From the NCBI RefSeq assembly GCF_001432305.1, contig NZ_KQ483358.1:3066087-3130086 (forward strand): a DNA stretch of 64,000 nucleotides, given 5' to 3'. The stretch comes from Curvibacter sp. PAE-UM. Its GTDB lineage: Bacteria; Pseudomonadota; Gammaproteobacteria; Burkholderiales; Burkholderiaceae_C. Both the position numbers and the translations under genes were made by a program. The notes below the pieces were generated by a model. That model had not been told where the DNA came from. It was given only the letters and a program-made list of their open reading frames with translations, and did not search any database. The first letter of the stretch is position 1. Each line of letters begins with the position of its first letter. This document shows positions 29,074 through 54,871 of the stretch, in pieces.

Positions 29074-30126
29074 TCAAGCCTGCCGGGTGGCGGGCGATTC
29101 CAGCAGCGTTCGAATGTATGGCTGCGCCGCCGCGCCATGCGCGCGGTACAGGGTCAGCACCTGTTCACACACGGACTGCCAATGCGCGGCACCCTGGCCG
29201 CAGGCCGATGCCAGCGCCTGACCGCCATCACCCGCGCCATATGCCGTGTAGGCCCGCTCCAGCCCGGGCGCCAGTTCGGCGCGCAGGCCTTCGAGGTTGG
29301 CGAACCAGAAGTGCAGCGAGGCCCCGTGCTGGCGCTGCAGCAGCGTGGGCAGGGTGACGCGGCAGTCGGCCAGCAGGTCGCGCACGGCGCGCACGTAAAG
29401 TTCGGTGCGGCGATCGTTCAGGGCCTGGCGCATGGCGGCCCAGTCGGAGCCCAGCAGGGCGGCCGCCTGGGCTTCGCCCAGTTCGTGCAGGATCAGCGTT
29501 TCGGCCTGCAACTGCACCATGCGCGTCACCGCCTGTTCCCCATCAGCCGCATAGCCGTGGGCGTCGAGTGCGCGCTTGAAGGACCCTTCGGAGCGGCGCA
29601 GGGTCCAGGCCTCGTATTTTTCCCAGAGCCAGCGCTGCAGCGATTCCTGGCGCAGGTAGATGGTGCCGTCCTGCAGCGCGGCCGGTGGCGAGCTCAGGCC
29701 GCGCGCGTACTCATGCCCGCTGGTGCGCACCAGCACGCCATCGCGCGGCTGCGCCGATTCCAGCGCAGCGAGGAAAAAGCTGGCGCGCCCCGGGGCCGTG
29801 TAACCGGCGCCATAGACCAGGCCCTGCGGCAGCAGCGCGGCGTTGATGGGCTCCACATCGAAAGGGTCGATGCTGCCGCCGGCCAGCGGCAGTGCGCGCC
29901 AGGCCTGGCCCTCCAGGCCGTCCCACAAGGCCTCGCGTGCACTGAGCCAGGCGCCCACGGCTTCGCGCGCCATGGGCTGCAAGGGGGCGATGCCCTGTTC
30001 CCAGCGGTAGAACTCGCGCATCTGCAGCAGGTAGATGCACAGCGTCATGTCGGCCGCATGCGCCGCATCGGCGATGTGGCAGTTGGTCTGCACGGCCTCG
30101 ATCAGGGCGCGGTCCGGGGCATTCAT
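29074..30126 (-). CDS. Unrecognised protein, last gene of the ten-gene operon
   Basis: A 350-residue soluble, mainly helical protein with no signal peptide. I do not recognise a catalytic motif. Notable segments are CHIADAAHAADMTLCIYLLQ near the start, MREFYRWEQGIAPL and LLQRQHGASLHFWFANLEGL. It overlaps the preceding 148-residue gene by four bases and is therefore part of the minus-strand operon that diverges from dsrA. Allochromatium DsrS is also a soluble protein of similar size with unknown role, but I see no sequence reason to equate the two. Confidence 0.65.
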   Translation of the reverse strand: MNAPDRALIEAVQTNCHIADAAHAADMTLCIYLLQMREFYRWEQGIAPLQPMAREAVGAWLSAREALWDGLEGQAWRALPLAGGSIDPFDVEPINAALLPQGLVYGAGYTAPGRASFFLAALESAQPRDGVLVRTSGHEYARGLSSPPAALQDGTIYLRQESLQRWLWEKYEAWTLRRSEGSFKRALDAHGYAADGEQAVTRMVQLQAETLILHELGEAQAAALLGSDWAAMRQALNDRRTELYVRAVRDLLADCRVTLPTLLQRQHGASLHFWFANLEGLRAELAPGLERAYTAYGAGDGGQALASACGQGAAHWQSVCEQVLTLYRAHGAAAQPYIRTLLESPATRQA

Positions 30127-30569
30127 GGCTGGGGCCCCTGCGGGGTCCGGCGGCGGGGCTGCCAGGCCACGATCTGCGCCACGATGTCGGGCCAGGGCAG
30201 ATCGGTCAGGCTGCCATGCGCATCCCGGGCCTGGCCGATCAGGCGGTGCACATCGACGTGATCGGCCTGCAGCGCCTGCTGCAGGCCGCGCAGGCCGCCG
30301 CAGTGCAGGCGCATGACGGTGGCGTGCGTGAGCGGCGTGCCCGGGTGCAGCTTGAGCGGGAAGGTGGCGCGCTCCAGGAAGAGGCGCTCCAGCGTCTCGC
30401 AGTTCAGGTGGGCCGGCGCGCTGGGGCAGGCCAGGGTTTCACGCTCGGCCAGCGAGCTGCGCTGCACCAGCTCGCACACGGCGTGGCGGGCCAGCAGCGC
30501 GCCCTGGAAGACGCAGGGCAAGGGGCTGCTCTGTGTGCGCATCTCCCGGAAGGCCGTTTCGTCGACCAT
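30123..30569 (-). CDS. Unrecognised cysteine-motif protein
   Basis: A 148-residue protein with five spaced cysteines: PCVFQGALLARHAVCEL (two, 14 apart), ETLACPSAPAHLNCETL (two, ten apart) and RLHCGGLRGLQQ. The spacing is not that of a classical ferredoxin, but the pattern would suit a metal or iron-sulfur site. The rest is helical and soluble. It overlaps the 350-residue gene downstream and follows the 72-residue gene by four bases. Metal binding is inferred from the cysteines alone. Confidence 0.62.
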   Translation of the reverse strand: MVDETAFREMRTQSSPLPCVFQGALLARHAVCELVQRSSLAERETLACPSAPAHLNCETLERLFLERATFPLKLHPGTPLTHATVMRLHCGGLRGLQQALQADHVDVHRLIGQARDAHGSLTDLPWPDIVAQIVAWQPRRRTPQGPQP

Positions 30570-30573
30570 GCCA

Positions 30574-30792
30574 TCACTCTTCGCCGGGCGGGCCGGGTTC
30601 GCGCACCTGGCACAGCAGGTCTTCGGCCATGAGCTCGTTGTCGGCGAAGATGACCTTGATCTTGTCGCGGGTCTTCACGTCCAGGCCCGTGCGCAGGATC
30701 TTGGCCTGGGCCGAAGCGGGCGCAAAAGCGCCGTGCTCAGCCAGCTTTTCCAGGCCGGCAAAGGACTTGACGCGGTAGATGTAATAAGGCAC
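30574..30792 (-). CDS. Small conserved hypothetical protein
   Basis: A 72-residue acidic protein (MPYYIYRVKSFAGLEKLAEH start, EDLLCQVREPGPPGEE end). The predicted fold is a short alpha/beta unit. It lies nine bases after the S24-like gene and four bases before the cysteine-motif gene. Its spacing and codon use fit a real gene of the operon. No function can be assigned. Confidence 0.6.
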   Translation of the reverse strand: MPYYIYRVKSFAGLEKLAEHGAFAPASAQAKILRTGLDVKTRDKIKVIFADNELMAEDLLCQVREPGPPGEE

Positions 30793-30801
30793 TTGGGTTC
30801 C

Positions 30802-31143
30802 TCAAACGTAACGCTTGCTGGCTTTGCGGCGGCCCGGCAGCGCCTTCTGGATGATGACGCCGCGCACGGTGGCGAGGTCGGGCAGCGACAGATCGGGGAA
30901 GGCCGGGTTCAGCGCATGCAACTGCCAGGCCTCTCCTCTCTTGCACAGCTGGCGGAAGATCCACTCGCCCTCGTGTTGCGCCAGCACGTAACTGCCATCG
31001 CGCAGCGCGCCCTCGGGTTCGATGACGATGATCTCGCCCTCGTTGAACTCGGGCTCCATGCTGGTGCCCAGCACGCGCAACGCGAAAGCCTCGCTGCCGC
31101 TACAGGCAGATTCTTCCATCACGGGTTCGCCGGACATCGTCAT
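30802..31143 (-). CDS. Degenerate S24 (LexA/UmuD-type) peptidase-fold protein without HTH
   Basis: A 113-residue protein containing only the LexA/UmuD C-terminal fold. The nucleophile motif VLGTSMEPEFNEGEIIVIEP is intact (Ser-Met). In the second motif, where LexA has the general-base Lys (TVKRLKKQG), this protein has WIFRQLCKRG, so Lys is replaced by Arg. No N-terminal DNA-binding domain is present. The start overlaps the stop of the ferredoxin-reductase gene (ATGA). It may be a non-proteolytic sensor or partner protein; loss of activity is inferred from alignment by eye. Confidence 0.78.
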   Translation of the reverse strand: MTMSGEPVMEESACSGSEAFALRVLGTSMEPEFNEGEIIVIEPEGALRDGSYVLAQHEGEWIFRQLCKRGEAWQLHALNPAFPDLSLPDLATVRGVIIQKALPGRRKASKRYV

Positions 31144-32639
31144 GCCGTCTCCCCCACCGGCTCCAGCAGCACGTTGCAGTGGATCTGCGCGGTGGGCACG
31201 CCGGAAGCACGCAGCTCGGCCTGCAGGGCGGTCACGAACACTTCGGGGCCGGCCAGGTAGAAGTCGCACTCGATGTCAAAGAGGTCGGCGCGCATGGCGC
31301 GCGCCAGCTGCGCCGCACCGAAGCTGACGTCGGGCTCGGCCAGCAACTCGTATTCGAAGGGGTCCAGCGCCTCACCCCAGGCACGGCACTGGTTCTCCAG
31401 GAAGTGGCCGTCGGGTTTGGTGGACAGCCAGAACAGCGAGAGCGAGGGGGCGGCGTCCAGCGCCAGCGCGTGCTCGATCAGGCTCTTGATCGGGGCGAAG
31501 CCCGCGTCGCAGGCGGCAAAGACCAGCGGACGCTGGCTGTCTTCCAGCACGAATTCACCCACCGGCCCCCAGACCGTGACCGCGTCGCCGGGCTTGATGC
31601 CATCGGCGAACAGCTGCAAGGCGAAGGGGTCGAGCGGATGGCGCTCGATGAAGAAATGCAGGTTGCGGTCGTCGCAGGGGCAACTGGCCACGGGGTAGAG
31701 CGCGTGCACGTCGCTGCCGTCGGGACGGTTCACGCCCAAGGTGACGGACTGTCCCGCCAGGAAGCGCAGGCGGTGGCTGCGCGGCGTCTGCAGATGGAGC
31801 AGCCGCGTGCCGGGTGCCAGCTGGGTGACGGCGCGCACGGTGGTGACGATCTGCTGCTGCGGAATGTCCTGCGGGCCGCTGGCCTCCAGCAGCTCCAGCG
31901 TGAGTTCGCTGCTGCCCGCGGTATGCGCGCACATCAGCGTGTAGCCCTGGGCTTTTTCGGCTTCGGACATGGGGTAGTCGCAGGGCTGGGTACGCACCAC
32001 CTGGCCGGAGATCACGCGCACCTTGCACATGCCGCAGGTGCCGTTGCCGCAACCGTAGTTGAGCTTGAGGCCGGCGCGCAGGCCGGCCTGCAGCAGCGTG
32101 TCGTGGCCCTCGACGATGAATTCGTGGCCGCTGGGGCGCACCGTCACCTGTGCAGACATGACCTTGAGCATATCGTCCATCACCGTCAGCAAATCGGCCT
32201 GTTCGGTCGCCAGCGCCCTGGCCAGACCCTGGTCGACGAAATCCTGCAGCTCGGCCAGCGCCAGGGGCGAGGCACCCTTGCCCTGCAGGGCCTGGATGCG
32301 TTCCTGCAGGGCCACCACCAGTTCGTGGTAACGCTGCAGGTAACGACGCACGTCGGCCAGCTCCTGCGTCTGGCTGAACAGGCGCTGCGCCAGCACTTCC
32401 TGGCTGGGCAGCAGGCGTTCGCGCAGGCGCCGGCCAAAGGCCTCGTCGCGTATGGTGATGACGCGCTCCAGGATGCCGGTGTCTTCGAGACGGGTCGTGG
32501 GGTACAGGCGCAGCAGCTGGTCGGTGGACACCAGGCCTTCGGTGAGGACCAGCGAGCCATCGCGTACCTGTTGCTGCAGCACGCCGCGCGAGACGCCCAC
32601 GAGCTGGGCGGCGCGCCAGACAGTCAACCAGTGGGTCAT
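31140..32639 (-). CDS. HTH - 2Fe-2S ferredoxin - FNR-type reductase fusion
   Basis: A 499-residue three-part protein. Residues 1-45 form a MerR/excisionase-like helix-turn-helix (WRAAQLVGVSRGVLQQQV). Residues 60-140 are predicted coiled coil. Residues 170-265 form a plant-type 2Fe-2S ferredoxin with the CGNGTCGMC cluster loop and a distal Cys in LMCAHTAG. Residues 270-495 form an FAD/NAD(P) reductase (LRFLAGQSVTLGV, GPVGEFVL, ACDAGFAPIKSL, FYLAGPEVFV). A redox enzyme carrying a DNA-binding head suggests a flavin/iron-sulfur redox switch or a docking domain. The start at 32639 overlaps the dioxygenase stop; the frame extends upstream to 32882 without homology. Confidence 0.85.
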   Translation of the reverse strand: MTHWLTVWRAAQLVGVSRGVLQQQVRDGSLVLTEGLVSTDQLLRLYPTTRLEDTGILERVITIRDEAFGRRLRERLLPSQEVLAQRLFSQTQELADVRRYLQRYHELVVALQERIQALQGKGASPLALAELQDFVDQGLARALATEQADLLTVMDDMLKVMSAQVTVRPSGHEFIVEGHDTLLQAGLRAGLKLNYGCGNGTCGMCKVRVISGQVVRTQPCDYPMSEAEKAQGYTLMCAHTAGSSELTLELLEASGPQDIPQQQIVTTVRAVTQLAPGTRLLHLQTPRSHRLRFLAGQSVTLGVNRPDGSDVHALYPVASCPCDDRNLHFFIERHPLDPFALQLFADGIKPGDAVTVWGPVGEFVLEDSQRPLVFAACDAGFAPIKSLIEHALALDAAPSLSLFWLSTKPDGHFLENQCRAWGEALDPFEYELLAEPDVSFGAAQLARAMRADLFDIECDFYLAGPEVFVTALQAELRASGVPTAQIHCNVLLEPVGETA

Positions 32640-33562
32640 ACGGCCACCTCCTCTTGCGGCTGCGCCACGTGTTCGTCGCGCACATGGTCCAGATAGCGCG
32701 CGCGGTACAGCAGGCGCGGCTGCTGCGGATCGTCGCTGAAGCCGCTGCGCTCGTGCGGCACGTTGTTGGCCACGATGCCCATGCCCGGCTGCAGGAGCAG
32801 GCGGAAGATCCAGGGCTGCTCGCCGGCCAGCAGCTGTTCGATGCCGGCCACCGCCGCGCGCGTCGTGGGGTCGTCCTTCCACTCGATGCTGCGCGTGCGT
32901 GCGGTGTAGCGCATCTGCAAGCCGCCATCGGGGCGCAGGTAGAACACCGGGCCGCTCTGCGCCGGGCGCGCCACGCCGTTCTCGTCAGCGCGCTCGGGAA
33001 TGGTCATGGCGTCCGGCGCCATGAGGGCGCGCACCCACCCGGGGTTGGCGTCGCGCAGGGCCAGGTAGACCCTCTCGTGATCCACCAGGCCGCTCACACC
33101 GCCCTCGCCGGCGTTGCGCACGCAGTGCAGGATCATGCCCTCGATGCGGCGCGCCTGCGGGTGGTAATAACCATCGGTGTGCCACTTGATGGGCTTGTTG
33201 GTGTAGGGGATGAACTCGCCTTTCGGGGCGCCCTCTTCCTCCTGCGCGACTGCAATCGACGAGATGCCGTCCTCGTCGGCCAGCCAGTTGGCATCCAGCT
33301 GATGCAGGCCCAGCTGCGCCCCCAGCAGGCGCGGCAATTCCTTGTCTTCCACCGTCACCGGGCTGCGGTAGACCACCATGTTGGCGCGCCCGCAGCGATC
33401 CAGCAGCGCGGCACGCTCGGCCGAGGTGAGCCGGCGTGGATCGCCCACGTCGACGATCAGGTCCTCCACGCGCCTGGGGTGTGTGGCCAGCTTGGCGGCG
33501 CGCCAGCGCGCGTAGGCTTCGGGCTGATCGAGATCGAAGGGACTGGCGACACGCATATTCAT
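32636..33562 (-). CDS. TauD/TfdA-type Fe(II)/2-oxoglutarate dioxygenase
   Basis: A 308-residue dioxygenase. The iron ligands are the His and Asp of KWHTDGYYHP and the distal His of NNVPHERSGF; the 2-oxoglutarate Arg is in LLYRARYLDHV. Family members hydroxylate taurine, sulfonates, aryloxyacetates or carnitine precursors. The placement in an operon next to dsr suggests a sulfur compound, possibly a sulfonate releasing sulfite, but the substrate is unknown. It overlaps both neighbours by four bases. I start at the ATG at 33562 because upstream sequence to 33862 overlaps the preceding gene. Confidence 0.85.
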   Translation of the reverse strand: MNMRVASPFDLDQPEAYARWRAAKLATHPRRVEDLIVDVGDPRRLTSAERAALLDRCGRANMVVYRSPVTVEDKELPRLLGAQLGLHQLDANWLADEDGISSIAVAQEEEGAPKGEFIPYTNKPIKWHTDGYYHPQARRIEGMILHCVRNAGEGGVSGLVDHERVYLALRDANPGWVRALMAPDAMTIPERADENGVARPAQSGPVFYLRPDGGLQMRYTARTRSIEWKDDPTTRAAVAGIEQLLAGEQPWIFRLLLQPGMGIVANNVPHERSGFSDDPQQPRLLYRARYLDHVRDEHVAQPQEEVAV

Positions 33563-34167
33563 TCTCCGGACATGGAGGCACGGCGCTTGGGGCGCGGCTC
33601 GGTGGACAGCACACCGTCCAGGCCGCGCTTGACCATCTCCAGCGCCTCGGGCACCTCGTAAGCCATCACCTGGTCCTTGACCCAGTGGCGGTCCTTCCCG
33701 GGCAGGACCGACTCCAGCCGGCTGCCGAGGTAGCGCACGAAGCCGAAGTCCGGGCCCTCGGGGCCATGGCCGAACTCGGCATAACCTTCGGCCAGCTCGT
33801 TGGACTGGTCGATGAACTGGTTGCGCCAGCTCTCCTGGCCGGCCGCCGGCTCGCCCAGCCACTCCTGCTCGCTCTCCTCCAGGATCTCGGCCACGCGCAC
33901 GACCAGGGCGCTGGTGAACTCGGTGCGCTGCTCACCCGGCATGCGCTCGAAGGCCATGCGATCGACCACCTGGCACAGGAAGACCAGCACCTCGCGCATG
34001 AAGGCGAAGTACTGCGGCCCGACGTCGATGTCGAACTTCGCCTCGCGCATCTGCTTGACCATGTTCTGCGTCACGCGCCAGGTGATGAAGGCCATGGCGC
34101 TGGCGTTCTCCCGCGGCGTCTTGGGGACACCGGACTGGAACCACTGGTTCTTGATGCGCAGGGCCAT
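33559..34167 (-). CDS. Unrecognised helical protein of the ten-gene operon
   Basis: A 202-residue soluble, helix-rich protein (WRVTQNMVKQMREAKFDIDV, YFAFMREVLVFLCQVVDRM). It has one Cys in the FLCQVVDRM helix and a basic, Ser/Arg-rich C-terminus ending MSGE. I do not recognise the family. It starts 22 bases after the cysteine-free DsrC homologue and overlaps the dioxygenase by four bases, so it is presumably co-produced with both. Confidence 0.65.
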   Translation of the reverse strand: MALRIKNQWFQSGVPKTPRENASAMAFITWRVTQNMVKQMREAKFDIDVGPQYFAFMREVLVFLCQVVDRMAFERMPGEQRTEFTSALVVRVAEILEESEQEWLGEPAAGQESWRNQFIDQSNELAEGYAEFGHGPEGPDFGFVRYLGSRLESVLPGKDRHWVKDQVMAYEVPEALEMVKRGLDGVLSTEPRPKRRASMSGE

Positions 34168-34189
34168 GGTCTCTTTCTTCAGGCGGACT

Positions 34190-34519
34190 TCAGTACCCGC
34201 CTTTGCCCAGCGGCTGCGGCAGCCCCGCCACCTTGGCCGCCTGCTTGGCCGGACCGAGGGGAAAGAGGTCGTACAGGTACTTGCTGTCCACGCCCTCGCG
34301 GATCTCGCCGAAGCCCTTGAGCATGTTGCGGAAGTTGGGCGTATGGCCGTTTTCCTTGTACTCGTCGCGCAGGTAGTTGATGACTTCCCAGTGCGCGTCG
34401 GTCAGCTTGATGCCTTCGGCTTCGGCAATCACCTGCACCACTTCCTCGCTGTAGTCCGGTTCGAGCAGATAGCCCTCTTTGTCGGTTTCGAGTTCCGCGC
34501 CGTTCACGCTGTAGCCCAT
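34190..34519 (-). CDS. Cysteine-free DsrC/TusE-family protein (RspA-like)
   Basis: A 109-residue DsrC homologue (NGAELETDKEGYLLEP, LTDAHWEVINYLRDEYKENG, KYLYDLFPLGPAKQAAKVAG). It lacks both redox cysteines: Ala replaces the first (KQAAKVAG against KQACKIAG in DsrC) and the C-terminus ends LGKGGY where DsrC ends TGCV. Sulfur-carrier or trisulfide chemistry is therefore excluded. Cysteine-free DsrC proteins have been grouped as RspA and suggested to be regulatory. The DsrC fold has a helix-turn-helix-like part that might bind DNA or partner proteins. It is the third gene of the minus-strand operon. Confidence 0.85.
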   Translation of the reverse strand: MGYSVNGAELETDKEGYLLEPDYSEEVVQVIAEAEGIKLTDAHWEVINYLRDEYKENGHTPNFRNMLKGFGEIREGVDSKYLYDLFPLGPAKQAAKVAGLPQPLGKGGY

Positions 34520-34551
34520 TCTTGTGTCTCCTCGATTTGTTGCACAAAAAA

Positions 34552-35181
34552 CTATTCGCCCACCGCCGCCGCCGACTTGTGGGGCACGAAAACGCCGCAG
34601 CCCAGCTGCCGGTGCGGCCCCAGGCCCTGCTCCTGCACGCGCAACGAGTCCGCCCGACTGAGGGCGTGCAGCATCAGGCTGAAGGTGGTGAGGGTCTGCC
34701 CCTCATGGGGACGGCCGCCACGTTTGCCGCAGACCGTGTGCGTGCGCACCCCCAGGGCCTGCAGCTCGCCGGCCACGGTCTGCATGAAAACCACCTCGTC
34801 CTCGCCCGCGGCGGCCACGGCGTAGGCGTAGAGCGTGGCATGCGCCAGCAGCTCACGCTCGTGCGGTTCGCCCAGCTGCACGGGGTGCTCACCGATCAGG
34901 AGCGTGCGCCCGGCCAGGAGGCGGGCATCACCCACGCGTGCACGCGGCAGCCGCAACAGCAGACGGGTGCGCTGTGACAACAGGCTCACCGGGCCGGCGC
35001 TGGCGCCCTGCACGAGCTTGAGGGGGTGGATGCCGGCACCTGACTCCTGCGCCAGCCAGGGCAACTCCTGCTGCAGCGCAGCATGCAGCGCCTGCATGTA
35101 GTCGCGCGGGACAGCCCGGCCCGCCAGCGGGAAGGCCAAGTCGACGACGCTGGCCGGTGGCAGGTCGTCTTCAAAGCTCAT
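34552..35181 (-). CDS. Orphan Cas6-like protein (MYXAN / Cmx6 type)
   Basis: A 209-residue protein resembling Cas6 of the myxococcal CRISPR subtype, an RNA endonuclease of the RAMP fold. The VVDLAFPLAGRAVPRDYMQA start, the RTRLLLRLPRARV strand and the C-terminal glycine-rich loop GLGPHRQLGCGVFVPHK are the visible matches. The loop is the usual RNA-binding element. No CRISPR array or other cas gene is present anywhere in the window. It overlaps the 75-residue gene upstream by four bases. It may have been recruited to process or bind a cellular RNA; that role is speculative. Confidence 0.72.
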   Translation of the reverse strand: MSFEDDLPPASVVDLAFPLAGRAVPRDYMQALHAALQQELPWLAQESGAGIHPLKLVQGASAGPVSLLSQRTRLLLRLPRARVGDARLLAGRTLLIGEHPVQLGEPHERELLAHATLYAYAVAAAGEDEVVFMQTVAGELQALGVRTHTVCGKRGGRPHEGQTLTTFSLMLHALSRADSLRVQEQGLGPHRQLGCGVFVPHKSAAAVGE

Positions 35182-35405
35182 GGCGTCTCCGTGTCGCGCG
35201 GCTGTTTGTCGGCCCAGGCCAGCAGCGCCCGGCCCCAGGCCTCGGCCGTGTCGGGGTCGATGTCGAAGATGGTGAAGCGGGATTTCTCCCGGATGCGCGT
35301 GCGCAGGAAACTCATGCCGCCGGTGTCGAAGTCCACCTGTTGCAGCTCGATTTCCTGACCGCCGAGCGGCACCCTGAATTTGTCCAGCGGGGTGATCTGG
35401 GTCAT
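35178..35405 (-). CDS. Small conserved hypothetical protein, first gene of the ten-gene operon
   Basis: A 75-residue protein (MTQITPLDKFRVPLGGQEIE, later FLRTRIREKSRFTIFDIDPD and WGRALLAWAD). The pattern suggests an alpha/beta fold without membrane segments. I start at the ATG at 35405; the frame stays open to 35513, but that part overlaps the predicted regulatory region. It overlaps the Cas6-like gene by four bases. No function can be assigned. The gene is the first downstream of the dsr divergent promoter region. Confidence 0.65.
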   Translation of the reverse strand: MTQITPLDKFRVPLGGQEIELQQVDFDTGGMSFLRTRIREKSRFTIFDIDPDTAEAWGRALLAWADKQPRDTETP

Positions 35406-35485
35406 GTCTCCGTCTTTGTTCTGGACCGGACCGCCTGCTGGGCCGCCCCGTCTGTAAGTGCTATTGACGCAATTCCGGGCCGGAC

Positions 35486-35556
35486 CGTCTATAGCCGGGA
35501 CGGGTGGCGCCATATAACCCTTTTGGGTAGTCCCGCCTACTCAACGAGGGGGATAG
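35486..35556. promoter_or_regulatory. Divergent control region between the ten-gene operon and dsrA
   Basis: The 297-bp spacer contains a central 12-bp inverted repeat ACCC-TTTT-GGGT at 35517-35528. On the minus side, ACCCGT..CGG..ATAGACG occupies 35505-35486, 11 bases from the repeat. On the plus side a GATAGC stretch lies at about the same distance (ATAG at 35553). The same two blocks in the same order occur upstream of soeA and tusA. I interpret the 12-mer as an activator site and the ATAG block as the promoter -10. Bases 35557-35690 show only an AGGAGACAAGA ribosome-binding site before dsrA. Confidence 0.6.
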
Positions 35557-35702
35557 CTAAGGCACCACCCCCGCCCCTAGGATGCACCCGAGAGGCACAA
35601 AAAGAGACCCCAAGAGTCCGGACCCTGCCCGCAGCGTGTGACCGCCGTCGTCAAACACGGCATCCAGGACTTGCGACAAGTTCTAAGACAGGAGACAAGA
35701 TC

Positions 35703-37001
35703 ATGGCGAAAAAAATGCACGCCACCCCGATGCTCGACGAGCTCGAGGGCGGCCCGTGGCCCAGTTTCGTGACCGGCCTCAAGCGCCTGGCCAAGGACAA
35801 GGACTACATGGTGGACCTCATGGGCCAGCTGGAGACGTCCTACCAGACCCGCAAGGGCTACTGGAAGGGCGGCACGGTCGGCGTGTTCGGTTATGGCGGC
35901 GGCGTGATCCCGCGCTTCACCGAACTGAAGGACGAGAGCGGCAAGCCGCAGTTTCCTGACGCGGCCGAGTTCCACACCCTGCGCGTGCAGCCGCCCCCCG
36001 GCATGCACTACAACACCGACATCCTGCGCAAGTTCTGCGACATCTGGGAAGAGCACGGCTCGGGCCTGATCGCCTTCCACGGCCAGTCGGGCGACATCAT
36101 GTTCCAGGGCGCCAAGACCGACAAGGTGCAGGATGCCTTCGACGCGATCAACGAACTGGGTTTCGACCTGGGTGGCGCCGGCCCGGCCGTGCGTACCTCC
36201 ATGTCCTGCGTGGGTGCCGCGCGCTGCGAGCAGTCCTGCTTCGACGAGGCGCGCGCGCACCGCCAGGTGCTCAACACCTTCACCGACGACATCCACCGTC
36301 CGGCCCTGCCCTACAAGTTCAAGTTCAAGTTCTCGGGCTGTTCCAACGACTGCATGAACTCGATCCAGCGCTCGGACATGGCGGTGATCGGCACCTGGCG
36401 CGACAACATGCGCACCGACGAGGCGCTGGCACGCAAGTGGTTCGCCAAGCACGGCATGAACGAGCTGGTGAACGACGTCATCAGCCGCTGCCCGACCAAG
36501 ACCATCATGCTCAAGGAAGTCAAGGACGTCGCCAAGGGCGACAAGATTTCCAGCGTGAAGATCAACGACACCCAGTGCCTGGAGATCGACAACAGCAACT
36601 GCGTGCGCTGCATGCACTGCGTCAACGTCATGACCGGCGCACTGGCCCACGGCACCGACACCGGCGCCACCATCCTGGTGGGCGGCAAGCGCACGCTCAA
36701 GATCGGCGACCTGATGGGCACCGTGGTGGTGCCCTTCATGCCGCTCAAGACCGATGCCGACTATCAGCAGCTGGTCGAGCTGGGCCAGAAGGTCATCGAC
36801 TTCTTCGCCGAGAACGCACTGGAGCACGAGCGCACCGGCGAGATGATCGAACGCATCGGCCTGGTCAACTTCCTCGAAGGCATCGGCCTGGAGGTCGACG
36901 CCAACATGGTCTCCACCCCGCGCACCAACCCCTATGTGCGCGCCGACGGCTGGGACGATGAAGTGGCCAAGATCAACGCGCGCAAGCAGGCGGCCGGCTG
37001 A
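35703..37001 (+). CDS. dsrA: Dissimilatory sulfite reductase subunit alpha (reverse type)
   Basis: A 432-residue subunit of the alpha2beta2 siroheme enzyme. In sulfur oxidisers it oxidises DsrC-bound sulfur to sulfite in the cytoplasm. The siroheme/4Fe-4S ligands are Cys169, Cys175, Cys213 and Cys217 (CVGAARC, then CSNDC). A ferredoxin insertion follows with SNCVRCMHCVNVMTG. The ATG at 35703 has a perfect AGGAG site; the open frame from 35157 is antisense to the operon. Co-occurrence with dsrEFH and dsrL, and absence of dsrD, indicate the oxidative direction. Confidence 0.96.
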   Translation: MAKKMHATPMLDELEGGPWPSFVTGLKRLAKDKDYMVDLMGQLETSYQTRKGYWKGGTVGVFGYGGGVIPRFTELKDESGKPQFPDAAEFHTLRVQPPPGMHYNTDILRKFCDIWEEHGSGLIAFHGQSGDIMFQGAKTDKVQDAFDAINELGFDLGGAGPAVRTSMSCVGAARCEQSCFDEARAHRQVLNTFTDDIHRPALPYKFKFKFSGCSNDCMNSIQRSDMAVIGTWRDNMRTDEALARKWFAKHGMNELVNDVISRCPTKTIMLKEVKDVAKGDKISSVKINDTQCLEIDNSNCVRCMHCVNVMTGALAHGTDTGATILVGGKRTLKIGDLMGTVVVPFMPLKTDADYQQLVELGQKVIDFFAENALEHERTGEMIERIGLVNFLEGIGLEVDANMVSTPRTNPYVRADGWDDEVAKINARKQAAG

Positions 37002-46462: not shown

Positions 46463-47914
46463 ATGAACCGCCTGCTCGTCTCGGCTGCACACAAGTCGTC
46501 GGGCAAGACCACGGTCACCCTGGGCCTGTGCGCCGCGCTCAGCGCGCAGGACCAGCGCGTGCAGCCCTTCAAGAAGGGGCCGGATTACATCGACCCCATG
46601 TGGCTGGCCCAGGCCAGCGGCCGGCCCTGCTACAACCTCGACCCCTACCTGATGACGGGCGCGCAGATCCGCGCCCTGTTCGGCCAGCACGCGCAGCACG
46701 CCGACCTCAGCATCGTCGAAGGCAACAAGGGCCTGTACGACGGCCTGGCCCTGGACGGCAGCAACAGCAACGCCGCCCTGGCCCATATGCTGGACCTGCC
46801 GGTGCTGCTGGTGATCGACGCACGCGGCATGACACGCGGCATCGCGCCGCTGATCCTGGGCTACCAGGCTTTCGACCGGAACCTGCGCATCGCCGGTGTC
46901 ATCCTCAACCGCCTGGGCGGCAGCCGCCACGAAGCCAAGCTGCGCGCCGTGATCGAGCATTACACCGACGTGCCGGTGCTGGGCGCCATTGCCGAAGACC
47001 CGGAGCTGGCCGTGGCCGAGCGCCACCTCGGCCTGATGCCCAGCAACGAACACGCCCAGGCCGCGCAGCAGGTGCAGCGCATCGGTGCGCGCATCGCCGC
47101 CCAGGTCGACCTGCAGCGGGTACGCGAACTGGCCGCCAGCGCGCCCCGCTTCCAGCCCGAGCCCGTGGATAACTCCGTTCGCCCTGAGCTTGTCGAAGGG
47201 CTTCGACAGGCTCAGGGCGAACGGAAGGACATCGTGCGCATCGCCCTGGCGCGCGACCAGGCTTTCGGTTTCTACTACCCCGACGACCTGCAGGCCCTGG
47301 AAGCGGCCGGTGCCGAACTGCTGCCCTTCGACACCCTGCGCGACACCACCCTGCCGCCCGACCTGGACGGCCTGTTCATCGGCGGCGGTTTCCCAGAGCT
47401 CTTCCTGCCGCAGTTGCAGGCCAATGCCGCGCTGCGCGCGCAGATCGCCGACGCCATCGAGGCCGGCCTGCCCGTCTACGCCGAATGCGGCGGCCTCATG
47501 TACCTGGCGCGTTCCATCACCTGGCAGGGCCAGACCGGCCGCATGGTCGGCGCCCTCCCCGGCGACGTGACCCTGCACACCAAACCGGTGGGCCGCGGCT
47601 ACGTCAGCCTGGCCGCCAGCGCCGCCATGCCCTGGCCCGGCCTGCAGGGCCGGGAGCTGCGTGGCCACGAATTCCATTACTCCGCCATCGAGGGCCTGCC
47701 GGCCGACAGCCTCTACGCCTGGCGGGTGACGCGCGGCCACGGCGTGGACGGCAAAGTTGACGGCCTGGTGCATCGCAACGTGCTGGCCGGCTACGCCCAC
47801 CTGCGCAGCCTGGGCCCGGAGGGCTGGGCGCCGGCCTTCGTCGATTTCGTGCGCCGCTGCCGCGACGCTGCCGACACGGCTGCCCAGCCGGAAACCGCAG
47901 GAGTTGCCCCATGA
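46463..47914 (+). CDS. dsrN: DsrN, siroheme amidase (CobB/CbiA-type)
   Basis: A 483-residue glutamine-dependent amidotransferase that amidates siroheme for DsrAB. The N-terminal P-loop is SAAHKSSGKTTVTLGLCAAL. The C-terminal class I glutaminase domain contains GLPVYAECGGLMYLA with the nucleophilic Cys. The central segment of about 18 residues (residues ~237-254, DNSVRPELVEGLRQAQGE) is encoded by an interspersed palindrome and has no counterpart in the family. The ATG at 46463 gives the correct N-terminus. It overlaps the next gene by four bases. Confidence 0.93.
   Translation: MNRLLVSAAHKSSGKTTVTLGLCAALSAQDQRVQPFKKGPDYIDPMWLAQASGRPCYNLDPYLMTGAQIRALFGQHAQHADLSIVEGNKGLYDGLALDGSNSNAALAHMLDLPVLLVIDARGMTRGIAPLILGYQAFDRNLRIAGVILNRLGGSRHEAKLRAVIEHYTDVPVLGAIAEDPELAVAERHLGLMPSNEHAQAAQQVQRIGARIAAQVDLQRVRELAASAPRFQPEPVDNSVRPELVEGLRQAQGERKDIVRIALARDQAFGFYYPDDLQALEAAGAELLPFDTLRDTTLPPDLDGLFIGGGFPELFLPQLQANAALRAQIADAIEAGLPVYAECGGLMYLARSITWQGQTGRMVGALPGDVTLHTKPVGRGYVSLAASAAMPWPGLQGRELRGHEFHYSAIEGLPADSLYAWRVTRGHGVDGKVDGLVHRNVLAGYAHLRSLGPEGWAPAFVDFVRRCRDAADTAAQPETAGVAP
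47175..47224 (+). repeat. Palindromic interspersed repeat in frame inside dsrN
   Basis: A 50-bp imperfect palindrome with 24-bp arms (CCGTTCGCCCTGAGC.TGTCGAAG, one mismatch) around a GG centre. The sequence belongs to a repeat family that is common in proteobacterial intergenic DNA. Here it is read through as part of dsrN. Confidence 0.9.
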
Positions 47915-48288
47915 CTGAAACGCCCGACCCCATCGCGAAAGATGTTTTCACCCGCGAACTGCTGGTCAAGGGCCGGCCCGTGCTGACCGACTCCGAAGGT
48001 TATCTGCGCAACCTGGGCGACTGGTCCGAGGACTTCGTGCGCGCCCTGGCCGCCCACGAGGAGCTGAAACTGGGCGACGAGCACTGGGCCATCATCCGCT
48101 ACCTGCGCGAGTACTATGCTGAACATGGTGTCCAGGCCCAGGTGCGCGTCATGATCAAGCATTTCACCGAACTCTGGGGCCCGGAGCGCGGCAACAACCA
48201 TTACCTGCATGAACTGTTCCCGCGCGGCGGTCCGCAGAAACAGGGCAACCGGCTGGCCGGCCTGTTGCGGACCAAGGGCGAACACTAA
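47911..48288 (+). CDS. DsrC/TusE-family protein lacking the C-terminal cysteines
   Basis: A 125-residue second DsrC-like protein of the dsr operon. The DsrC core is visible ([60 protein letters not shown]). The C-terminus ends LLRTKGEH, so neither redox cysteine exists. It has an extended N-terminus of about 20 residues ([18 protein letters not shown]). It cannot carry sulfur as DsrC does. A regulatory or scaffold role is inferred. Confidence 0.85.
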
Positions 48289-52923: not shown

Positions 52924-53613
52924 TTACTTGCGCGTCTCGCCGCCCGCCGCCGTGCCGCCCTCGCCCGACGTGCGGTGCTCGAACGCAAACACCGCCGCCT
53001 CCACCCGTGAACCGAGATCGAGCTTGGCCATGATGTGGCGCACGTGCAGCTTCACGGTGTTGTGGCTGATCTCCAGGGCCTGGGCGATGACCTTGTTGCT
53101 TTTGCCGCGGGCCACGTGCTCCAGCACCTCGCGCTCGCGCTCGGTCAGGCTGTCCACCAGGTCGCGCTTGACCGAGCCCTTCTGGCCCTGCTGCCACATC
53201 TGCGCCAGCTTGAGGGCCATGCTGGGGGCCACCACCAGCTCGCCGCGGGCGGCGCGCTGGATGGATTCGATCACGTCGTCGGGCTCCATGTCCTTGAGCA
53301 GGTAACCACGCACGCCGGCGCGCAGCGCGCCGGCCAGGTCTTCCTCGGCGGTGCACATGGTGAGGATGACCACCGGGGTCTCGATGCCTTCGGCGCGCAG
53401 CGTGCGCAGCACGCTCAGGCCGTCGATGGGCCCCAGTCTCAGATCCAGCAGCACCAGGTCGGGCTGGTGCTGGCGCACCAGGGCCACGGCCTCGTCCGGC
53501 TTGCCGGTGTCGCCCAGCACGTCCATGCCGCCACGGCCGCGCAGCAGGTCGGCCAGGCCGCTGCGCAGCACGGCATGGTCATCCACCAGCACCAGGCGCA
53601 CCACTTGGGTCAC
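52924..53613 (-). CDS. NarL/FixJ-type response regulator
   Basis: A 229-residue regulator. The receiver domain has VLVDDHAVLRSGLADLLRGR with the acidic pair, the phospho-acceptor Asp in LVLLDLRLGP, and a Lys in YLLKDMEPDD. The C-terminal LuxR-type HTH is LTEREREVLEHVARGKSNKV. The start is the GTG at 53613 with GGAGG seven bases upstream; a TTG at 53646 is less likely. The kinase gene is 58 bases upstream on the same strand. It is the obvious candidate to bind the shared ACCC-type sites at soeA, dsrA and tusA. Confidence 0.93.
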   Translation of the reverse strand: MTQVVRLVLVDDHAVLRSGLADLLRGRGGMDVLGDTGKPDEAVALVRQHQPDLVLLDLRLGPIDGLSVLRTLRAEGIETPVVILTMCTAEEDLAGALRAGVRGYLLKDMEPDDVIESIQRAARGELVVAPSMALKLAQMWQQGQKGSVKRDLVDSLTEREREVLEHVARGKSNKVIAQALEISHNTVKLHVRHIMAKLDLGSRVEAAVFAFEHRTSGEGGTAAGGETRK

Positions 53614-53671
53614 GACGCAGCCTCCACGCCGGGCACTGCGGTCCAAGCGCCTTCGGACGGCCGTGCGGCGT

Positions 53672-54871
53672 TCATGCGCTCCCCACGTGCGCCGTCGGGA
53701 ACGGCACCGTCAGGCGCACCCGGGTACCGCCGCCCTCGCGCGGGCCGATCTCCACCACGCCGCCCAGGCGCTGGGCGCGCTCGTTCATGATGTCCAGCCC
53801 GAAATGCGCACGGCCGTCGGCCTGCAGGGCGGCCACGCCGCGGCCGTCATCCTCGACACGCACATCGAGATGGCTGCCGCGATGGCTCAGCGTCAGCCAG
53901 GCCTGTTTTGCCTGGGCGTGGCGGCCGACGTTGGCCAGCGCCTCCTGAATGATGTGGAAAACCTGCACTTCCTGCTCGCTCGTGAGACCGAGGTCGGGCG
54001 CTTCGTGCTGCACCTGCAGCGGGATGCCCGCGCGCTGGCGGAATTCGGCGGCCAGGACCTGCACCGCGTGCAACAGGCCCTGCGGGTCCATGGTGACGCG
54101 GAAGTTGGTCAGGATCTCGCGCAGGTTGCACTGGATGCTACCCATGGCCTGCTCGACGTCGGCAAAATATTTCTCCGAGAGGCGGTCGTCGTGCGCCTGC
54201 ATGGCGTCCTGCAACAGGGGCAGGCGCATGTTCACGAAAGCCAGGCTCTGGGCGATGCTGTCGTGCACCTCGCTGGCCAGGAACTTGCGCTCGGTCATCA
54301 CGGTGCTGGCCAGGGTCTCGCGCTCCAGCCGGGCGTTGTGCAAGGCCAGGCCGAGCAGCTCGCCGATGGAACGCAGCACGGTCTGCACGTCGGCGCCGAG
54401 CTCGGCCTCGCTGCAGAAGAACAGGTTGTACAGGCCCAGCAGGCGGCCGCGATGCCGCAGCGGCACGGCCAGCATGCGCTGGCAGTCCCGGTAGAAGCGT
54501 GCCTCCGACGGGTGATGACGGGCGCAGGAGCTCATGTCGGCCGTCCAGGCCGGGGCATCGCTGTCGGCGGCCACGCCGCAGGTGCCGCAATGCCGGTCCA
54601 CCAGGAGTTCGGCGATGCGCACCTCGGGCGGCAGGCCCACGTCGCCCACCATGCGCATGTGCTCACCGTCTTCGGAGAGGATGCGCACCACACCGGCCTG
54701 GGCACCGGCCAGGCGCACGATCGGTCCCAGGAACTGCCCCAGCAGGGTTTCCAGTTCCCGGCCCTTGCTCAGTCCGGAAGTGATCTCCGCCAGCAGACTG
54801 GCCACCGGCGGCGCATCGACCGCGGTGAGATCCACGGACAGGCCGCCCGCCTGAGGCGCAAGCCTCAGCAT
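53672..54871 (-). CDS. Soluble NarX-type histidine kinase with Cys-rich GAF domain
   Basis: A 399-residue cytoplasmic kinase without membrane segments. Residues 25-185 form a GAF-like sensor with cysteines in HCGTCGVAADS, MSSCARHHPS and YRDCQRML. The HisKA_3 phospho-acceptor is in ASEVHDSIAQSLAFVNMRLP, followed by the ATPase (QEALANVGRHAQA, VEDDGRGV, GLDIMNERAQRLGG). NarX has a similar cysteine cluster between its membrane and kinase parts. The cysteines suggest redox or iron-sulfur sensing. A GGGAGG site supports the ATG at 54871. Confidence 0.92.
   Translation of the reverse strand: MLRLAPQAGGLSVDLTAVDAPPVASLLAEITSGLSKGRELETLLGQFLGPIVRLAGAQAGVVRILSEDGEHMRMVGDVGLPPEVRIAELLVDRHCGTCGVAADSDAPAWTADMSSCARHHPSEARFYRDCQRMLAVPLRHRGRLLGLYNLFFCSEAELGADVQTVLRSIGELLGLALHNARLERETLASTVMTERKFLASEVHDSIAQSLAFVNMRLPLLQDAMQAHDDRLSEKYFADVEQAMGSIQCNLREILTNFRVTMDPQGLLHAVQVLAAEFRQRAGIPLQVQHEAPDLGLTSEQEVQVFHIIQEALANVGRHAQAKQAWLTLSHRGSHLDVRVEDDGRGVAALQADGRAHFGLDIMNERAQRLGGVVEIGPREGGGTRVRLTVPFPTAHVGSA

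What the first reader, a model, noticed from the sequence alone, without database searches (positions are those of the whole stretch)
29074..35405. Ten-gene operon of mostly unknown proteins divergent from dsrA: candidate undescribed sulfur-linked system
Ten minus-strand genes, six junctions overlapping by four bases and the rest within about 30 bases, form one transcription unit that starts in the dsrA divergent spacer. It combines an orphan Cas6-like RNA endonuclease fold, a cysteine-free DsrC homologue, a 2OG-dioxygenase, an HTH-ferredoxin-reductase fusion, a degenerate S24 protein, a multi-cysteine protein and four proteins that I cannot name. Tight coupling of RNA-, redox- and DsrC-related proteins suggests a regulatory or assembly system, not a simple pathway.
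Basis: partly seen in the sequence, partly recalled or inferred. Interest (0 to 1): 0.88.

Follow-up and report, generated by a model that had tools for sequence, protein, structure and literature searches.

The report
Cas6-family protein wedded to sulfur oxidation
Beside the genes with which many bacteria oxidise stored sulfur sits a conserved, unexplained gene set that includes a relative of the CRISPR enzyme Cas6; it follows the sulfur genes rather than any CRISPR system, so it probably has an undescribed job in sulfur oxidation.

Summary
The ten minus-strand genes are real and tightly packed (five four-base overlaps, not six). All ten recur together in 8 of 17 dsr-positive relatives, own genome included. 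They are two modules. The core is much wider than the operon: a Cas6-family protein (g2), a 2OG dioxygenase (g5) and a DsrC paralogue (g3) whose cysteine tail is replaced by KGGY. In 369 class-level genomes 118 have dsrA, 118 this Cas6, 111 both; of 84 with both on one contig, 82 lie within 10 kb, all divergent from dsrA. Among 100 relatives the 17 Cas6 carriers are the 17 dsr carriers. The own genome has no Cas1, and 41 of 80 Cas6 carriers tested lack it. So a protein that databases call 'type I-MYXAN CRISPR-associated Cas6' is here in effect a dsr-locus protein. Fold and Gly-rich loop are intact; the presumed catalytic His is kept in 89 of 100 sequences but is Tyr in the window. Best guess: CRISPR-independent action on RNA in the service of the Dsr machinery (0.4); an assembly role is the main rival.

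The parts
35178..35405 (-). g1, DUF6967 protein (75 aa), first gene of the unit
   Evidence: PF22295 109.5 bits; in 7 of 369 class genomes
34552..35181 (-). g2, Cas6-family protein (209 aa), Y28 in place of the presumed catalytic His
34190..34519 (-). g3, cysteine-free DsrC paralogue ending GLPQPLGKGGY
33559..34167 (-). g4, unnamed all-helical protein (202 aa)
   Evidence: no family; AlphaFold2 model pLDDT 87.2; no PDB match at E<=0.001
32636..33562 (-). g5, TauD-type 2OG-Fe(II) dioxygenase with its metal motif
   Evidence: PF02668 65.9 bits; motif consensus of 50 sequences
31140..32639 (-). g6, 2Fe-2S ferredoxin-reductase protein (499 aa)
   Evidence: Fer2 and FAD_binding_6
30802..31143 (-). 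g7, S24/LexA-C-like protein, Ser kept, Lys position Arg
   Evidence: PF00717 68.2 bits
30574..30792 (-). g8, unnamed small protein (72 aa)
   Evidence: no family; orthologues
30123..30569 (-). g9, unnamed protein with 5 Cys (148 aa)
   Evidence: no family; homologue after dsrN in L191
29074..30126 (-). g10, DUF6866 / Sfum_1244 family protein (350 aa)
   Evidence: NF045620 412 bits, cut-off 150
35406..35703 (.). spacer between the divergent g1 and dsrA starts; no sigma-70-like promoter found by a simple scan
35704..37001 (+). dsrA, the constant neighbour; head of the dsr operon
   Evidence: TIGR02064 509.6 bits
39234..39566 (+). dsrC proper, with the TGCV cysteine tail that g3 lacks
   Evidence: PF04358
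39591..39640 (+). strong RNA hairpin in the dsrC-dsrM spacer; considered as a Cas6 target, not supported as an obligatory one

Best explanation
It is an accessory system dedicated to the Dsr machinery, not a CRISPR remnant. Shown: one branch of the Cas6 family, usually with a 2OG dioxygenase and a DsrC paralogue whose cysteine tail is replaced by KGGY, is encoded divergently from dsrA across dsr-carrying genomes of this class; g4, a rhodanese, DUF6967 and the g6-g10 module join it in some lineages. Inferred: the Cas6-fold protein binds RNA, and in most lineages can cut it, and so sets the amount or processing of Dsr components after transcription. The KGGY paralogue would dock on the partners of true DsrC (DsrAB, DsrEFH or DsrK) with an inert arm and so sense or compete; the dioxygenase would report oxygen or 2-oxoglutarate. 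In the window's genus the His-to-Tyr change would leave a binder that no longer cuts. The system part I hold at about 0.95; the figure below is for the RNA-level mechanism.
For: Co-occurrence: 118 dsrA and 118 Cas6 carriers in 369 genomes, 111 both, about 38 expected by chance; 17 of 17 in 100 relatives, including 7 of 26 genomes of one genus. Position: 82 of 84 same-contig pairs within 10 kb, all 82 divergent. No Cas1 in 41 of 80 Cas6 carriers tested, among them the own genome and five genomes of about 1 Mb that keep the Cas6, dioxygenase and DsrC-like genes. Fold: model pLDDT 92.2, nearest PDB chain a type I-B CAST Cas6, TM 0.85. Gly-rich loop 97-100 of 100, presumed catalytic His 89 of 100. 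Of 51 DsrC-like genes in the divergent arms of 58 loci, 49 end KGGY. Unequal amounts within one dsr transcript: a passage of PMC3397948 reports dsrEFH and dsrC transcripts well above dsrA on sulfide in A. vinosum; RNA processing would be one way to get that.
Against: No RNA target was found: the hairpin after dsrC, strong in 30 of 52 spacers, is missing in all five ~1-Mb genomes that keep the Cas6. His is Tyr in 11 of 100 sequences, the window's included, so cutting cannot be needed everywhere. No RNA binding was tested. In A. vinosum none of the four further DsrC genes named in PMC3368242 has a locus number next to dsrA (passage). The p value (5e-76) ignores relatedness. Exceptions: Cas6 and dsrA far apart in G423 and G208, G310 with dsrA and no Cas6, G398 with Cas6 and no dsr seen.
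Confidence: 0.4

Rival explanations
1. Assembly or maturation system. The Cas6 fold is used as a protein scaffold, the KGGY DsrC paralogue caps the DsrAB channel while cofactors are put in, and g6, g9 and g10 supply electrons or handle iron-sulfur clusters or sirohaem.
For: Ferredoxin-reductase (g6) and Cys-rich g9 in the unit; a g9 homologue after dsrN and a dsrR-like gene in L191; MoxR-type AAA and VWA proteins between g6 and g7 in L089; retention in ~1-Mb genomes, which suggests a direct need.
Against: The Gly-rich loop and the His of Cas6 are kept in most sequences, which a mere scaffold would not need; g6 and g10 are not universal (g10 in 48 of 80).
Confidence: 0.25
2. RNA modification. 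A TusE-like DsrC paralogue, an RNA-binding Cas6 fold and a 2OG dioxygenase together modify tRNA or rRNA in step with the sulfur supply.
For: TusE, the DsrC relative of E. coli, serves tRNA thiolation (recalled); g3 matches the TusE/DsrC/DsvC subfamily model; g5 keeps the dioxygenase motif.
Against: g3 lacks the cysteine that carries sulfur; no substrate known; nothing explains the tie to dsrA rather than to mnmA.
Confidence: 0.15
3. CRISPR remnant or chance neighbour: an ordinary Cas6 left beside dsrA.
For: It scores over the NCBI cut-off for type I-MYXAN Cas6.
Against: no regularly spaced exact 11-mers in the window (a crude test).
Confidence: 0.02

Closest known systems
Cas6/Cmx6 of type I-MYXAN CRISPR and Cas6 of type I-B CAST (PF09559, TIGR02807; 8fcj_B)
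   Same: Family score, whole fold (TM 0.85), Gly-rich loop, conserved Arg (R77), and in 89 of 100 the His
   Different: Own clade (support 0.959 against seven plasmid sequences); own residues R71, H52, H201, K202; Tyr for His in the window; partner is dsrA, not cas genes
DsrC / TusE / DsvC (PF04358, TIGR03342)
   Same: g3 matches both (123 and 106 bits)
   Different: No C-terminal cysteine; conserved KGGY end
Known dsr accessory genes dsrR, dsrS, dsrT
   Same: Genes at the dsr locus outside the catalytic set; named as further dsr genes in PMC11406059 (passage)
   Different: The trio is divergent from dsrA, not in the operon; no match to it was found under these names. A DsrS label that I first gave to a neighbour in L089 was from memory and not borne out
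NCBIfam Sfum_1244 family / DUF6866
   Same: g10 is a member (412 bits, cut-off 150)
   Different: No function is given; found in 48 of 80 Cas6 carriers, so not part of the core

Membership tests
Cas6 protein family (PF09559) | score over curated cut-off | tested here: met
   175.3 bits, cut-off 26.7; TIGR02807 134.5, cut-off 98.85
Cas6 protein family (PF09559) | double ferredoxin-like Cas6 fold | tested here: met
   model pLDDT 92.2; 8fcj_B TM 0.85
Cas6 protein family (PF09559) | catalytic His (position recalled) | tested here: not met
   Tyr28 in the window; His in 89 of 100 dsr-linked and 7 of 7 plasmid sequences
CRISPR-Cas system, type I-MYXAN | cas genes and array beside cas6 | tested here: not met
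   no cas-like gene among the neighbours and no regularly spaced repeats in the window
CRISPR-Cas system, type I-MYXAN | Cas1 in the genome | tested here: not met
   0 in G000; 39 of 80 other-and-own Cas6 carriers have one
DsrC sulfur carrier | C-terminal cysteine(s) | tested here: not met
   g3 has no Cys; ends GKGGY in 15 of 15 dsrA-divergent relatives aligned
DsrC-like family (PF04358) | score over curated cut-off | tested here: met
   123 bits, cut-off 24.9
TauD-type 2OG-Fe(II) dioxygenase | HxD...H metal motif and distal Arg (motif recalled) | tested here: met
   WHTDGYY, NNxxH and RxxxRxR in the consensus of 50 sequences at >95% for the key letters
Self-cleaving S24 peptidase | Ser-Lys pair | tested here: not met
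   Ser kept, Lys position Arg in 10 of 10
dsr-locus accessory gene of dsr-carrying bacteria | co-occurs with dsrA and lies beside it | tested here: met
   111 of 118 and 82 of 84; 17 of 17
dsr-locus accessory gene of dsr-carrying bacteria | needed for sulfur oxidation | not testable with these tools
   needs deletion strains

The most novel reading that the evidence does not exclude
A CRISPR ribonuclease family was taken over once by oxidative Dsr metabolism and has since been a near-obligate part of it. With a 2OG dioxygenase and an inert KGGY DsrC decoy it forms a sulfur- and oxygen-responsive control acting on RNA, a kind of metabolic control not described in what I could search. Many public proteins named Cas6/Cmx6 in these bacteria would then be misnamed sulfur-metabolism proteins.
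Probability: 0.33. Interest if true: 0.93.

Novelty: new variant of a known kind. Interest (0 to 1): 0.85.

Why it matters
Reverse Dsr is a main route of bacterial sulfur oxidation, and its locus has long been studied. A partner nearly as constant as dsrA itself, with a fold whose nearest solved relatives are all CRISPR Cas6 proteins, means that a part of the pathway or of its control has been overlooked, perhaps because annotation files it under CRISPR. It makes an open question testable: how one dsr transcript gives unequal amounts of Dsr components. It also offers a CRISPR-free setting in which to see how a Cas6 changes its use.

Tried and rejected
CRISPR remnant: rejected.

A hairpin after dsrC as the obligatory Cas6 target: 59 dsrC-dsrM spacers (57 distinct; some genomes appear twice under two loci), 52 of at least 30 bases scored, mean z -2.5, 30 of 52 below -2. 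Its sequence is not conserved, and it is absent in the five ~1-Mb genomes, whose dsr spacers hold no stable hairpin; their region upstream of dsrA folds at best at -6 to -10 kcal/mol. Other spacers: dsrH-dsrC mean z -0.1 (49 scored), last 200 bases before dsrA -0.4 (69), dsrK-dsrL -0.5 (44), dsrA-dsrB -1.4 (48, 19 below -2), dsrB-dsrE -1.9 (19 of 60 long enough, 7 below -2); the last two were not followed. A three-sequence alignment of the hairpin was too small to count compensatory changes. Rfam: nothing at window 26-50 kb.

DsrS: a ~353-aa neighbour in L089 was first labelled so from memory; it matches nothing after dsrN/dsrR in L187-L189, so the label was dropped.

g4: no Foldseek match in PDB at E<=0.001. 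Phylum sample: Cas6 in 5 of 398 genomes, all of the window's own order; dsrA was not searched there; the two new ones, G691 and G664, have dsrA beside it. Alphaproteobacteria with dsr, Chlorobiota and sulfate reducers were not reached by a targeted search.

Papers: ten searches (two searches listed 20 of 157 and 20 of 255). None of the listings or of the ten papers looked into by word search (none read whole, no supplements) links Cas6 with dsr; DUF6866, DUF6967, PF21739, PF22295 and Sfum_1244 occur in no held paper.

Rows dropped: 116 Cas6 frames became 100 after those under 150 aa and those with an identical core were dropped; the eighth plasmid hit (62% covered) was not fetched.
Full report
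Observation. Ten minus-strand genes, g1 (35405) to g10 (29074), are there, with five four-base overlaps and gaps of 32, 22, 9 and 4 bases; the spacer to dsrA is 298 bases. Families: DUF6967, Cas6, DsrC, none, TauD, Fer2 + FAD_binding_6, S24, none, none, DUF6866. NCBIfam names g2 'type I-MYXAN CRISPR-associated protein Cas6/Cmx6' (134.5 bits, cut-off 98.85).

Conservation of the ten. The window lies in G000, a 3.6-Mb genome; its same-genus relatives include MAGs labelled Hylemonella and Curvibacter. Among 100 relatives, own genome included, g10 (NF045620) is in 13. dsrA is over cut-off in 15; G073 has dsrA in pieces on two contigs and G011 only a weaker dsrAB-type hit near a contig end. All 13 are among these 17. 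The ten genes stand together in 8 of the 17 (window and L038-L044); in G011 the contig starts just before g1, so dsrA is not seen there. L273, outside this sample, also has all ten. In 13 of the 80 all ten families are present (order not checked; six of the 13 appear to be relatives already seen), 33 have g7-g10, and 17 have dsrA or dsrB in the held flank; 17 of these 17 have the Cas6. The other relatives have g1-g4 or g1-g5 at dsrA (L050-L054, L056, L057, L183, L184), with g10 elsewhere or absent. So there are two modules: g1-g5 at dsrA, and g6-g10, which moves.

The core is wider than the operon. In a class-level sample of 369 genomes, DUF6967 (g1) is in 7; 5 of them have dsrA, and the 2 without (G205, G322) show g1 with no other module gene in 20 kb. 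Cas6 is in 118 and dsrA in 118 (E<=1e-40; 112 over cut-off); 111 have both, where about 38 would be expected. The hypergeometric p, 5e-76, ignores relatedness. But within the window's genus 7 of 26 genomes have dsr and the same 7 have Cas6, so the two come and go together. Of the 111, 84 have both on one contig; 82 lie within 10 kb (median 1.7 kb) and all 82 are divergent; G423 (517 kb) and G208 (41 kb) are apart; 27 have them on different contigs.

Exceptions. Of 7 Cas6-only genomes, G166 has a dsrB fragment, G417 a dsrA fragment at the contig edge, G416 dsrN beside the trio; in G192, G226 and G285 the contig ends just past g5, where dsrA would lie, which may be a break of assembly, though G226 is rated 100% complete; G398 shows no dsr. 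Of 7 dsrA-only genomes six have dsrA within 1.9 kb of the upstream contig end (G169, G178, G209, G222, G306, G453; in G222 g5 is still seen). G310 has nearly 14 kb of upstream sequence without Cas6 and is a true exception as far as its draft goes.

Gene order. I read 58 loci, all chosen because both genes are on the stretch (L178-L180, L185-L191, L228, L236-L261, L273-L292, window). The divergent arm has g2 in 58, g5 in 50, g3 in 49 (DsrC-type hits counted as g3), g4 in 19, g1 in 6, SseA-like rhodanese in 5; in 40 it reads g5-g2-g3 outward from dsrA. In the window's order the arm reads g1-g2-g3-(SseA)-g4-g5 instead. Five genomes of about 1 Mb keep g5, g2 and a DsrC-like gene there (L236-L240) and have no Cas1; that they are symbionts is a guess from size.

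Not CRISPR. Cas1 is absent from the own genome and from 41 of 80 genomes tested, all 80 carrying both Cas6 and dsrA. No regularly spaced exact 11-mers occur in the window (a crude test). I fetched 7 of 8 plasmid-borne cyanobacterial Cas6 hits; six lie beside cas3 and one, in Gloeobacter, does not. Rooted on these, the dsr-linked sequences form one clade (FastTree support 0.959) with residues of their own: R71 in 100 of 100 against 1 of 7, H52 in 91 against 0, H201 in 90 and K202 in 92 against 0 (numbering of the window protein).

Fold and active site. The AlphaFold2 model (19 sequences) has pLDDT 92.2 and pTM 0.87; the nearest PDB chains are Cas6 of a type I-B CAST (8fcj_B, TM 0.85, E 3e-17), then other Cas6 and Cse3 proteins; by sequence that Cas6 is the only PDB match. 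The Gly-rich loop is kept in 97-100 of 100. The His that I take, from recall, as catalytic is kept in 89 of 100 and is Tyr in 11; the 11 fall in a group of 23 betaproteobacterial sequences (node support only 0.24) that holds both forms. So the window's protein may bind without cutting.

Partners. Of 51 DsrC-like genes in the divergent arms, 49 end in KGGY. In the 58 loci 50 DsrC-type sequences end KGGY, 45 of them without any Cys; of 57 others 54 end TGCV or TGCI like true DsrC. Among the relatives aligned, 15 of 15 dsrA-divergent g3 end GKGGY. g5 keeps the dioxygenase motif in a 50-sequence consensus. g10 is in 48 of 80 (46 over cut-off). In L191 a g9 homologue follows dsrN and a gene that I take for dsrR.

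Mechanism. Shown: family, fold, co-occurrence, position, kept loop, lost cysteine. Inferred: RNA as the ligand, Dsr RNA as the target, sensing by g3 and g5. The one candidate target found, a hairpin after dsrC (strong in 30 of 52 spacers), is missing in the ~1-Mb genomes and so is not obligatory. An assembly role is the main rival; RNA modification is a third.

Known work. None of ten paper searches, by their listings, nor any of ten papers looked into by word search, links Cas6 with dsr. PMC11406059 (passage) names dsrR, dsrS and dsrT as further dsr genes and holds no 'Cas6'. PMC5944118 (passages) and PMC5728499, PMC8889020, PMC7540712 and PMC10952691 (passages) use Cas6 only for CRISPR. PMC3368242 (passage) names four further DsrC genes of A. 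vinosum with locus numbers not next to dsrA, so the adjacency of g3 may not hold there. Most subscription papers are not held, so an earlier report cannot be excluded.

Rating. As a system the Cas6-dsr pair has no precedent in what I could search, but its parts belong to known families and its mechanism is unproven, so I rate it a new variant of a known kind and keep the bolder reading in the section on the most novel reading.

Noticed in passing
window 47911-48288 (+): A third DsrC paralogue of this locus, downstream of dsrN, also without any Cys and ending LRTKGEH rather than KGGY or TGCV.
   Followed up: partly
L267 1474-2265: A Gloeobacter plasmid carries a Cas6 of this family with no cas gene in the 3.6-kb stretch and a PAPS-reductase-family gene close by: perhaps another CRISPR-free use of Cas6.
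   Followed up: no
L112 11947-12519; L224 6644-7243; L276 2229-2837: A second 2OG-Fe(II) oxygenase follows g10: PF13640 in L112, similar by eye in L224 and L276; MsrB-like and PKHD-hydroxylase-like genes lie near in L276 and L138 (by eye).
   Followed up: no
L089 3730-8609: Between g6 and g7 lie a MoxR-type AAA protein, a DUF2201 metallopeptidase/VWA-like protein and a ~353-aa protein of no family; L224 has the first two beside g4 and g10.
   Followed up: partly
L191 17385-18104: dsrN, a dsrR-like gene and a g9 homologue stand in a row, an independent tie of g9 to dsr.
   Followed up: no
L054 9314-10640 and L055 9527-10881 (G073): Both dsrA copies of G073 match in two pieces with a short gap and a change of frame.
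   Followed up: no
L176 9847-10158 and L177 9755-10018 (G205, G322): DUF6967 alone in two genomes of one family without dsrA, so this small protein has a life outside the module.
   Followed up: partly
window 52924-54871 (-); L187-L189: A response-regulator-like and a sensor-kinase-like gene lie between the dsr operon and a molybdopterin-enzyme operon in the window; sensor-kinase-like genes also lie near dsrN in L187-L189 (by eye).
   Followed up: no
L050 11412-12389; L054 6597-7454: A 3-mercaptopyruvate-sulfurtransferase-like rhodanese sits between g3 and g4 in some lineages (L054: 149.7 bits, below the cut-off of 250).
   Followed up: partly
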